NCBI RefSeq assembly: GCF_028290435.1
Contig: NZ_JAQGJV010000088.1
Location: forward strand, 1-64,000
DNA length: 64,000 nt
Source of the DNA: Devosia sp.
Lineage (GTDB): Bacteria > Pseudomonadota > Alphaproteobacteria > Rhizobiales > Devosiaceae
Direction of reading: 5' to 3'
How positions within the stretch are numbered: position 1 is the first letter of the stretch; the number at the start of each line of letters is the position of its first letter. The notes beneath the pieces are model-generated. The model had not been told where the DNA came from, ran no database searches, and saw only the letters and a program-made list of their open reading frames with translations. Positions 14,303 to 46,483 of the stretch are shown here, piece by piece. Made by a program: the position numbers and the translations under genes.

Positions 14303-14408
14303 CCTCCCCCATCGAGGGGGAGGTTTCTCTCCACTCTTAGGACTGGATCGGGCCACATCCACCGGCGGACACCTCCCCCTTGATGGGGGAGGCTGGGAGG
14401 GGGTGACT
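14303..14408. repeat. REP/BIME-like palindromic element, copy 1
   Basis: Two hairpins, CCTCCCCC-ATCGA-GGGGGAGG (14303-14323) and CCTCCCCC-TTGAT-GGGGGAGG (14372-14392), flank a core that contains CTCCACTCTTAG, the reverse of the AGAGTGGAG core seen in the other copies. It fills the obgE-proB gap. Confidence 0.8.
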
Positions 14409-44678: not shown

Positions 44679-44763
44679 AACTTTGGGACAAGGCTTTTGA
44701 GCGCCGCAAAGCCGCTGTAATGTGCAGCCAGGCCTTGTGGACAGACCTTTGGGAGAACAATTG

Positions 44764-46296
44764 ATGATCGCCACCAGAAAGCTGCTGACATGCACCTTGG
44801 CAGGGCTTGTCCTGTCGACCGGTCTGGTACTGCCGGCCTTTGCACAAAAGATCGGCGCGCCGACACCGCCGGCCGCCACTGCCACAACCGGTGACGTCGA
44901 TTTCGGTGACGATAGCGGACAATGGCCCAAGGACACCGAATGCGACGACTCGCGTTTTACCGGCACCGGCATGGCAACCGAAATGGACGACAGCGCCATC
45001 CGCAAGGACGCCACCGATTGTAGCGCCGCCTTTGCCAAGGGCACCATCACCCTCAAGGACACCGGTACCGCCCCCGCCGATATCGCCATCGCGACCCCGA
45101 TCGACGCCATCAATTTCGGCGACGACACCAGCGAATGGAACAAGGACGGCGAATGCGACGATCCGCGCTTCCAGGGCACCGGTTCGGCCAGCGAGCTAGT
45201 CGATGCCGACCTGATGAAGGACGCCACCGACTGCAAGGCCGCCTATGAGAAGGGCACCATCACCCTCAAGGATACAGGAACCACCACCGACACCCCGGTC
45301 GCCATCAACAATACCGATATCGACTTCGGCGACGATAGCAGCGAGTGGAGCAAGGACGGCGAGTGCGACGACTCGCGCTTCGACGGCACCGGCATGGCCT
45401 CCGAAATGGACGACAGTGCCATTTCCAAGGACGCCACCGATTGCAGCGCGGCCTTCGCCAAGGGCACCATCACCCTCAAGGACACAGGCACCACGACCCC
45501 AGTTGCCAATGCCGATGTCGATTTCGGCGACGACAGCAGCCAGTGGTCCAAGGATGGCGAATGCGACGATCCGCGCTTTACCGGCACGGGCTCCGCCAGC
45601 CAGCTGCTCGACGAAGACAAGCTGCATGACGCCACCGACTGCAAGGCCGCCTTCACCGCCGGCACCATCACACTCAAGACCGACGGCACTGACGGCGGCG
45701 ACGTTCCAGTGGTCGCCACCGGCGACATCGTCTTCGGCGACGATGCCGGCGAATACAACAATGACCAGGAATGCGACGATCCGCGCTTCGAGGGCACTGG
45801 CGTTGCCAGCGAACCTGTTATCGAAAACCGCATGCACGACGCCACCGATTGTCAGGCCGCCGTTACCGCGGGCACCGCGACCATGAAGGCCGGCGAGACC
45901 AACGAGGCCGCCGCGTTCGATTACGGCACCGACAATTCCAAATATGCCAATGATGGCGAATGCGACGACAAGCGCTTTGTCGGCACCGGCATGGACAAGA
46001 AGCTGCTCGAGGAAGACGTCTCCAACGACGCCACCGATTGCCGCACCATGGTCGAATCGGGCGCCCTGAGCATCATCCCGGTCTACGATCCCGCCTATCT
46101 TGCCGGCGCTCCCTACGACAGCAAAGGCATCAACTTCGGCGACAACACCTCCGAATACGCCAATGACGACCAGTGCGACGACCCGCGCTTCCAGGGCCCG
46201 GGCACTGCCTCGACCCTGCTCGACGGCGACCTGCGCCACGACCGCGACGACTGCAAGAAAGCCTATGAAGCCGGCACGGTTATTTTGATCGACTAA
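44764..46296 (+). CDS. Exported protein of seven acidic two-cysteine repeats
   Basis: A 510-residue protein with a signal peptide (to about A-F-A-Q, residue 28) and nothing else but seven repeats at about 46-98, 117-169, 187-239, 253-305, 323-375, 385-437 and 457-509. Each reads roughly F-G-D-D-x-S-E-W-x-K-D-G-E-C-D-D-P-R-F-x-G-T-G, then about 13 residues, D-A-T-D-C-x-A-A-F-x-x-G-T-I-T-L. The two Cys are 26 apart in all seven (60/86, 131/157, 201/227, 267/293, 337/363, 400/426, 471/497), so one disulfide per repeat is likely. The Asp-rich loops suggest Ca binding. Linkers are Thr/Ala/Pro-rich. I recall single copies of this motif in other alphaproteobacterial exported proteins, but know no assigned function. 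A ribosome site GGGAGAA precedes ATG. Confidence 0.9.
   Translation: MIATRKLLTCTLAGLVLSTGLVLPAFAQKIGAPTPPAATATTGDVDFGDDSGQWPKDTECDDSRFTGTGMATEMDDSAIRKDATDCSAAFAKGTITLKDTGTAPADIAIATPIDAINFGDDTSEWNKDGECDDPRFQGTGSASELVDADLMKDATDCKAAYEKGTITLKDTGTTTDTPVAINNTDIDFGDDSSEWSKDGECDDSRFDGTGMASEMDDSAISKDATDCSAAFAKGTITLKDTGTTTPVANADVDFGDDSSQWSKDGECDDPRFTGTGSASQLLDEDKLHDATDCKAAFTAGTITLKTDGTDGGDVPVVATGDIVFGDDAGEYNNDQECDDPRFEGTGVASEPVIENRMHDATDCQAAVTAGTATMKAGETNEAAAFDYGTDNSKYANDGECDDKRFVGTGMDKKLLEEDVSNDATDCRTMVESGALSIIPVYDPAYLAGAPYDSKGINFGDNTSEYANDDQCDDPRFQGPGTASTLLDGDLRHDRDDCKKAYEAGTVILID
44899..46293 (+). repeat. Seven in-gene tandem repeats of about 160-215 bp
   Basis: The unit spacing is 71, 70, 66, 70, 63 and 71 codons. 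Units 1 and 3 are almost the same at the protein level (A-T-D-C-S-A-A-F-A-K-G-T-I-T-L-K and M-D-D-S-A-I-x-K in both), and units 2 and 4 share other features, which points to duplication of a two-unit block. Units 5-7 are more diverged. Confidence 0.85.
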
Positions 46297-46317
46297 GCTG
46301 GGCTGATCTCAAATGCG

Positions 46318-46349
46318 AACGGCGGGACTTGGGTCCCGCCGTTTTTGTT
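46318..46349 (+). terminator. Strong rho-independent terminator of the repeat-protein gene
   Basis: AACGGCGGGAC (46318-46328) pairs perfectly with GTCCCGCCGTT (46333-46343) around loop TTGG, followed by TTTGTTT. Confidence 0.9.
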
Positions 46350-46367: not shown

Positions 46368-46483
46368 GTCACCCCCTCCCGACCTCCCCATCAAGGGGAA
46401 GTGTCTGCCGGGGGGTTGAACTGGATCGAACGTCAAGAGTGGAGAGAAACCTCCCCCTTGATGGGGGAGGTAGGAGGGGGGTG
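46368..46483. repeat. REP/BIME-like palindromic element, copy 4
   Basis: CCTCCCC/GGGGA and CCTCCCCC-TTGAT-GGGGGAGG arms surround a core with ACTGGATCG and CAAGAGTGGAGAG. The core is the reverse of that at 14.3 kb, where the same ACTGGATCG and CTCCACTCTT occur. It lies between the repeat-protein gene and sdhB, which converge. Confidence 0.8.

What the first reader, a model, noticed from the sequence alone, without database searches (positions are those of the whole stretch)
44764..46296. Exported protein built from seven acidic repeats with invariant Cys-26-Cys spacing
After the signal peptide the 510-residue protein is nothing but seven copies of an Asp-rich unit with two cysteines. The spacing between the two cysteines is exactly 26 residues in all seven, while the linkers vary (unit spacing 63 to 71). 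This is strong selection on a disulfide-stapled mini-domain, and the D-G-E-C-D-D and D-A-T-D-C loops look suited to bind calcium or another cation. Units 1 and 3, and 2 and 4, are most alike, implying growth by duplication of a two-unit block. I know of single copies in other alphaproteobacterial exported proteins but no named function.
Basis: partly seen in the sequence, partly recalled or inferred. Interest (0 to 1): 0.75.

Follow-up and report, generated by a model that had tools for sequence, protein, structure and literature searches.

The report
Secreted string of seven disulfide-stapled modules
A soil-bacterium (Devosia) gene encodes a secreted protein made of seven copies of a small, very stable, aspartate-rich module with two paired cysteines; the module is not in the domain catalogues searched, probably binds calcium, and also occurs on secreted protein-cutting enzymes of other bacteria.

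Summary
Window 44764-46296 (+) encodes an exported 510-aa protein with seven gapless 55-aa units, each with two cysteines 26 apart (C16 and C42 of the unit), joined by variable linkers. AlphaFold2 gives one unit pLDDT 97.3 and the full protein as beads on a flexible string (pTM 0.29). The units match no Pfam, NCBIfam or PDB entry.

The module is widespread: nearly every Devosia genome examined, Pelagibacterium, Rhodobacterales, Erythrobacter, Hyphomonadaceae and gammaproteobacterial bins. It occurs in arrays of up to 17, in small lipoprotein-like proteins, and fused to trypsin-like or caspase-like peptidases. A four-Cys sister form exists.

Corrections: spacing 26 is fixed in Devosia, but 27, 20 and four-Cys forms occur elsewhere. 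Growth by a two-unit block is not supported: the last two units and the linker between them are conserved across Devosia, while internal units vary in number.

Best reading: each unit is a disulfide-stapled, probably Ca2+-binding extracytoplasmic module, and the array is a secreted multivalent string. Paired cysteines (61 of 61 ORFs have exactly two per unit) and Asp-never-Glu conservation support this; metal, ligand and function remain unproven. It resembles Lin12/Notch repeats in style but fails the sequence membership tests.

The parts
44764..46296 (+). Gene for the seven-unit exported protein (510 aa)
   Evidence: GGAG ribosome-binding-like motif at 44752-44755 read directly
44764..44844 (+). 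Sec-type signal peptide, about 27 aa ending LPAFA|QK (read by eye, no predictor run)
   Evidence: sequence; pLDDT under 50 for residues 1-39
44896..45060 (+). Unit 1 (residues 45-99; C60-C86)
45109..45273 (+). Unit 2 (residues 116-170; C131-C157); the unit folded alone
45319..45483 (+). Unit 3 (residues 186-240; C201-C227), nearest to unit 1
45517..45681 (+). Unit 4 (residues 252-306; C267-C293)
45727..45891 (+). Unit 5 (residues 322-376; C337-C363)
45916..46080 (+). Unit 6 (residues 385-439; C400-C426): next-to-last unit, one clade across 17 Devosia-type arrays
46081..46128 (+). Linker between units 6 and 7 (VYDPAYLAGAPYDSKG), conserved in Devosia-type orthologues
   Evidence: P450 and Y451 invariant, P443, Y445, G448, A449, D452 at least 90% in 35 sequences; short helix 443-448 in the model, but pLDDT only about 52 over residues 441-450
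46129..46293 (+). Unit 7 (residues 456-510; C471-C497): last unit, one clade across 17 Devosia-type arrays
46317..46344 (+). Intrinsic terminator-like hairpin (12 pairs, then T-rich tail) just after the gene

Best explanation
The gene makes an exported protein that is a flexible string of seven independently folding ~53-55 aa modules. In each module one disulfide (C16-C42) is inferred to pin a loop carrying D13, D17, D18 against the start of a helix carrying D38 and D41 (D-x-x-D-C), building a carboxylate cage that most likely holds one Ca2+ ion. The array is a secreted, multivalent, Ca2+-dependent binding protein of the periplasm or cell exterior. The two C-terminal units with their conserved linker form a fixed functional head; the N-terminal units set reach and valency and are gained and lost. 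Shown: the array, the paired cysteines, confident prediction of the unit fold, beads-on-string prediction, conservation in nearly all genomes of the genus, fusion of the same module to secreted-looking peptidases elsewhere. Inferred: export, disulfide formation, the metal, its identity, and ligand binding. The ligand is unknown.
For: Seven gapless units. AF2: unit pLDDT 97.3, pTM 0.82 with one helix 39-48; full length has 10-residue means of about 70-95 over the units, four of six linkers under 50, pTM 0.29. Pairing: 61 of 61 ORFs from 56 Devosia and related loci have exactly two Cys per unit from the first unit to the C-terminus; in three units elsewhere (L035, L114, L115) an extra Cys in the helix comes with an extra Cys just upstream of the unit. 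DsbB present. Metal-like conservation: columns 5, 6, 13, 17, 18, 38, 41 hold 753 D, 45 N, 0 E in 116 rows; the other acidic columns hold 241 D, 274 E, 65 N. Both the two-Cys and four-Cys branches keep D13, C16, D17 (at least 90% in the latter) and D-x-x-D-C and are homologous (hhalign 98.4%, score 65 against at most 18 in 50 column shuffles; each profile finds the other). Core gene: 74 of 75 genomes of the genus and 93 of 136 of the family (genus count read from the listed rows). Purifying selection: dN/dS 0.10 in units. Conserved C-terminal pair. Peptidase partners: trypsin-like in four and caspase-like with PPC in two of 10 proteins scanned, which I picked for looking like fusions or odd forms.
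Against: No metal was measured, and AF2 models no ions or disulfide chemistry. D38 and D41 sit at a helix start and could be a helix-capping pair without metal. The seven 'core' columns were chosen after seeing the alignment; columns 2 and 34, counted among the others, are also mostly D, and a third of the Glu among the others (95 of 274) comes from one conserved column, E15. One unit left out of the alignment (L036:1660-1833) has N at position 17. No match to any known Ca2+ domain in Pfam or PDB. The neighbouring genes (xerC, EamA transporter, sdhB) suggest no function. 43 of 136 family genomes have no match, so the function is dispensable for some relatives.
Confidence: 0.6

Rival explanations
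1. Disulfide-stapled structural or binding module without metal: the conserved Asp residues are helix caps and turn formers, and the array is an acidic secreted spacer or adhesin.
For: D38 and D41 fall at the N-terminus of helix 39-48, a normal capping place; R20 is 98% conserved and could pair with an Asp.
Against: Capping does not explain why D13, D17 and D18 are also never Glu, nor the absence of Glu at D41 in 116 of 116 rows; the domain has little regular secondary structure yet a pLDDT of 97, which by my general knowledge is common in metal- or disulfide-held modules.
Confidence: 0.22
2. Regulator or decoy of secreted peptidases: stand-alone arrays bind the same partners as the modules fused to trypsin-like and caspase-like enzymes, inhibiting or presenting substrates.
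For: The same module precedes trypsin-like domains (L037-L040 by Pfam, L042 by eye) and caspase-PPC proteins (L112, L138 by Pfam, L134 by eye). LNR modules of PAPP-A, a Ca2+ module in a protease, take part in a substrate/inhibitor exosite (PMC9579167, passages).
Against: The Devosia protein has no peptidase domain, and I recognised no such peptidase among the neighbours read.
Confidence: 0.1
3. Aspartate-rich secreted protein for mineral or bulk cation handling (Ca2+ or other metal buffering, carbonate or phosphate crystal control).
For: 106 D+E against 40 K+R in the protein, 17% Asp after residue 28; many repeated acidic modules.
Against: Specific, position-fixed Asp and a tight predicted fold rather than low-complexity acid; as few as 3-4 units in some genomes of the genus; the same module occurs singly in lipoprotein-like proteins and with enzymes.
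Confidence: 0.08

Closest known systems
Lin12/Notch repeat (LNR, Pfam PF00066), as in Notch and PAPP-A
   Same: Small, little regular secondary structure, disulfide- and (in LNR) Ca2+-held; C-D ... D-x-x-D-C end motif; occurs in arrays and in secreted proteases; PAPP-A LNR2 has a single disulfide (PMC9579167, passages).
   Different: ~53 aa with a 10-residue helix instead of ~30 aa; two or four Cys instead of six in Notch; no Pfam Notch match in 116 + 27 units; profile comparison not significant. 'Works like' is possible; membership not supported.
Four-Cys DGECDEP repeats of other bacterial ORFs (trypsin-like L038-L040; also L041, L042, L048, L058, L060; no name in the libraries searched)
   Same: Same core D-G-E-C-D-[DE] ... 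D-x-x-D-C; profile-profile 98.4%.
   Different: Extra Cys pair, shorter loop (18-22 between the two shared Cys), and the C-terminal helix/strand part is not conserved.
LDL-receptor class A, TSP3, EF-hand/dockerin Ca2+ repeats (recalled)
   Same: Asp-rich, Ca2+-binding (in those families), repeated in extracellular proteins; the first two Cys-stapled.
   Different: No Pfam match to any of them in the scans; different Cys/Asp order (recalled motifs).

Membership tests
Lin12/Notch repeat (PF00066) | Match to the Pfam Notch model | tested here: not met
   No Notch match for P0001, 10 related proteins, 116 two-Cys units or 27 four-Cys units; no match in the own genome, but that search rang in none of 14 controls
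Lin12/Notch repeat (PF00066) | Profile similarity above chance to Notch1/Notch3 LNRs | tested here: not met
   A3 score 14.3 and A2 12.6; column-shuffle mean 9.6, sd 2.3, largest 16.8 (A3) and 18.4 (A2) in 100 shuffles each; prob 4% and 2%. The LNR profile held only six repeats
Lin12/Notch repeat (PF00066) | Three disulfides (Notch), one or two in PAPP-A | tested here: inconclusive
   Two or four Cys per unit; reduced sets exist in PAPP-A
Lin12/Notch repeat (PF00066) | Same fold as solved LNRs | tested here: inconclusive
   Foldseek finds no PDB match with E at most 0.001 and VIA-align none with Z 2 or more among 3 chains; no LNR was offered as a control, and I expect Foldseek to be weak on a 55-aa irregular domain
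Lin12/Notch repeat (PF00066) | One bound Ca2+ | not testable with these tools
   Needs protein; only Asp conservation is available
LDL-receptor class A, TSP3, EF-hand/dockerin | Match to the Pfam models | tested here: not met
   none of these families appears
The uncatalogued two-Cys module (two-Cys/four-Cys superfamily) | D-x-x-C-D-D-x-R-F-x-G ... D-x-x-D-C with a helix after | tested here: met
   All seven window units; the 116-row alignment has G4, C16, D17, D18, F21, D38, D41, C42 invariant

The most novel reading that the evidence does not exclude
The module is a proteobacterial counterpart, convergent or extremely diverged, of the Notch/PAPP-A LNR: a minimal one-disulfide, one-Ca2+ exosite module used on secreted trypsin-like and caspase-like peptidases, of which Devosia keeps a free-standing multivalent array whose fixed C-terminal pair binds one dedicated partner.
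Probability: 0.15. Interest if true: 0.72.

Novelty: new variant of a known kind. Interest (0 to 1): 0.5.

Why it matters
It is a well-bounded extracytoplasmic module that the domain libraries searched here do not hold, predicted with very high confidence, carried by nearly every genome of one genus, and fused to trypsin-like and caspase-like enzymes elsewhere. If the Ca2+ site is real, it adds a very small one-disulfide Ca2+ module to bacteria and gives a handle on uncharacterised exported proteins. The fixed head and variable string make a clean system for asking how repeat number tunes a secreted protein.

Tried and rejected
LNR membership: profile-profile and Pfam tests not met. Solved structures by sequence: only chance-level hits with E 0.9 or more or none. 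Pfam on the whole protein: four sub-threshold matches, best E 0.03, none over its cut-off. Folds: no significant PDB match for unit or whole protein and 22 viral-model matches with E 2.9 or more. Phage and plasmid records: no tblastn match for P0001; viral contigs: 14 pattern matches, none confirmed. PHROGs: P0001 three matches, best E 0.0048; the four-Cys array L041 matches phrog_31518 (unknown function) at E 1.6e-8 for the whole protein, though no single stretch passes: a possible phage relative of the four-Cys form that I did not follow. An apparent eighth unit in the own genome (contig C48, E 4.5e-4) lacks the first Cys of the pair, holds a stop and is not in any plausible gene that I could see: taken as chance. 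Long antisense ORFs over the gene (for example 45196-46239, 347 aa) are taken as a by-product of its composition. Two-unit-block duplication: not supported by the unit tree (only 53 columns, deep forks weak). Literature: ten peptide strings in two searches gave 0 papers; Devosia + exoproteome listed 3 papers, none opened; a topic search gave 0. These searches cover exact strings in open-licence text only; UniProt, InterPro and AlphaFold DB were not searched.

Full report
Observation. The ORF at 44764-46296 (+) encodes 510 residues: a signal peptide (read by eye), then seven units whose two cysteines are 26 apart in all seven, with successive units 63-71 residues apart. The seven 55-aa units align without a gap and share 13 invariant residues. 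The constancy of the Cys spacing is part of a wholly indel-free domain.

Genome and context. The window is G000:C64 of a 4.58 Mb genome. The closest named relative, at 92% protein identity, is a Devosia metagenome bin (L061). Upstream and in the same direction lie xerC and an EamA-type transporter; downstream and convergent lies sdhB (names from my reading of the sequences). In the 50 named Devosia-type loci xerC is found in 47 (the other three are cut by a contig end), EamA in 47, and convergent sdhB in 33 within the fetched flank (counted from its listing; four of the 50 are titled only as Rhizobiales, Phyllobacteriaceae or Alphaproteobacteria bins but share the synteny). Five further loci (Pelagibacterium L105, L117, L121, L133 and the bin L104) keep xerC and EamA; L129 shows EamA only. 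A terminator-like hairpin follows the gene. In eight family genomes without a detected array xerC is present in all. In the seven of them that I fetched, an EamA relative lies within the 7 kb piece in six, and no unit is detectable (best E 0.38).

Distribution (own genome included in each count). With the unit profile: 37 of 61 relatives, that is all 37 of the genus and 0 of 24 others of the order; 93 of 136 genomes of the family, including 74 of 75 of the genus (the one listed miss is 55% complete); 13 of 297 of the order, of which ten are the same family; 12 of 385 of the class; 12 of 398 of the phylum. Some of the class and phylum hits are weak (E 1e-4 to 1e-3). A scan of named genomes confirmed 258 encoding stretches, of which the best 80 (78 loci) were kept: Devosia, Pelagibacterium, Marivivens and other Rhodobacteraceae, Erythrobacter, Hyphomonadaceae, Salinarimonas, and metagenome bins labelled Woeseiaceae, Pseudomonadales and Gammaproteobacteria.

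Architectures. Among 146 ORFs with hits (138 loci, many overlapping one another), copy number ranges from 1 to 17. Forms seen: plain arrays; single copies behind a lipoprotein-like leader (L032, L113, L126, L130, by eye); giant arrays of 16-17 (L104, L129); fusions to trypsin-like peptidases (L037-L040; L042 by eye) and to caspase-like domains with PPC domains (L112, L138; L134 by eye). Of 10 proteins given to Pfam, picked because they looked like fusions or unusual forms, four had trypsin-like and two had caspase plus PPC domains; none had a match over a family's cut-off on the module. NCBIfam gave nothing over the module for P0001 or eight related proteins.

Cysteines. Over 550 distinct segments, 503 have two Cys (spacing 26 in 447, 27 in 36, 20 in 15, other in 5), 42 have four, four have three and one has one. 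Devosia-type segments are 26 in 350 of 351; Pelagibacterium, L104 and L129 segments are 26 in 47, 20 in 13, 27 in 3 and 25 in 2. From the first unit to the C-terminus, 61 of 61 ORFs of Devosia and related loci have exactly two Cys per unit and none besides; three units elsewhere have an added Cys in the helix together with one just before the unit. This is what paired disulfides predict. DsbB is encoded in the genome.

Acidic residues. The 116-row alignment holds the seven window units plus 109 of 117 two-Cys representatives. Eight were left out: one copy of window unit 2, four from L003 (near-copies of window units), and one each from L036, L080 and L104; the L036 one (1660-1833) has N at position 17. 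In it columns 17, 18, 38 and 41 are Asp in all rows and 13 is D/N (one row other). Over the seven core columns there are 753 D, 45 N and 0 E; over the other acidic columns 241 D, 65 N and 274 E, of which 95 E come from the conserved column 15. Asp or Asn but never Glu is the pattern expected of short-chain oxygen ligands; helix capping explains part of it. The core columns were picked from the same alignment.

Structure. The unit is predicted at pLDDT 97.3 (five models 96.0-97.3), pTM 0.82, with one helix 39-48 that holds C42. The whole protein shows seven confident units, four linkers with stretches under pLDDT 50, and pTM 0.29: a flexible string. The linker between units 6 and 7 has a short predicted helix at low confidence (about 52) but is conserved in sequence. 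No solved structure matches significantly.

Evolution. In a tree of 109 units from 17 arrays the next-to-last units form one clade (100/99) and the last units another (98/93). Several internal units group within a species (L072 units 2-3, 100/94; L118 units 1-2, 100/73; L071 units 1-5, only 81/0) (53 columns only, many forks unresolved). So the C-terminal pair is old and conserved, and the N-terminal part changes in number. Window units 1 and 3 fall together; 2 and 4 do not. Against the nearest relative dN/dS is 0.10 in units and 0.19 in linkers plus N-terminal stretch.

The four-Cys sister. ORFs such as L038-L042 carry a shorter form with two more Cys. Profile comparison joins the two forms firmly (98.4%, score 65, shuffles at most 18), and each profile finds members of the other. 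Shared core: D13, C16, D17, D-x-x-D-C.

Comparison with LNR. The C-D ... D-x-x-D-C pattern, small size and protease association recall Lin12/Notch repeats, whose PAPP-A versions have one or two disulfides, bind Ca2+ and take part in a substrate/inhibitor exosite (PMC9579167, passages; Notch LNR in PMC3415683, passages). The alignment of the four-Cys profile to LNR falls in the expected register, but the score (14.3) is within reach of shuffles (largest 16.8), and the two-Cys profile does worse (12.6; largest shuffle 18.4). So: perhaps similar in working, not shown to be a member.

Verdict. A real, strongly selected extracytoplasmic module that the libraries searched do not hold. A disulfide is very likely, Ca2+ likely, and the role of the array open; my best guess is a secreted multivalent Ca2+-dependent binder with a conserved C-terminal head.

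Noticed in passing
window 46451-46469 (and 14304-14391): Palindromic repeat CTCCCCCATCAAGGGGGAG beside the gene; 61 exact pattern matches in the genome (29 forward, 32 reverse; reversed control 0), many as inverted pairs about 69 bases apart: a REP/MITE-like family.
   Followed up: partly
L080 (5815-6498 and 6354-7208), L084 (5354-6145 and 5947-6789): In two Devosia genomes the array is split over two overlapping frames: a frameshift or an assembly error in a repetitive gene. In L178 (G846) the array is broken by undetermined bases instead.
   Followed up: no
window 46081-46128: The linker between the last two units (P-x-Y-x-x-G-A-P-Y-D) is conserved across Devosia-type orthologues; possibly part of a binding site.
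   Followed up: partly
L177 893-1417 (-): One genome of the genus (G827) carries a second, separate two-unit exported protein between genes that look like prs and a ribosomal L25-type gene.
   Followed up: no
L104 3284-4346, L129 34-498: Beside the giant 16-17 unit arrays stand small two-unit exported genes near the same EamA locus.
   Followed up: no
L112, L134, L138: Caspase-like (C14) proteins with PPC domains and N-terminal modules in bins labelled Woeseiaceae, Gammaproteobacteria and Rhodospirillaceae (L134 was not Pfam-scanned, read by eye).
   Followed up: partly
L041 1327-2793 (+): The four-Cys array matches phage family phrog_31518 (unknown function) at E 1.6e-8 for the whole protein, so the four-Cys form may also occur in phages.
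   Followed up: no
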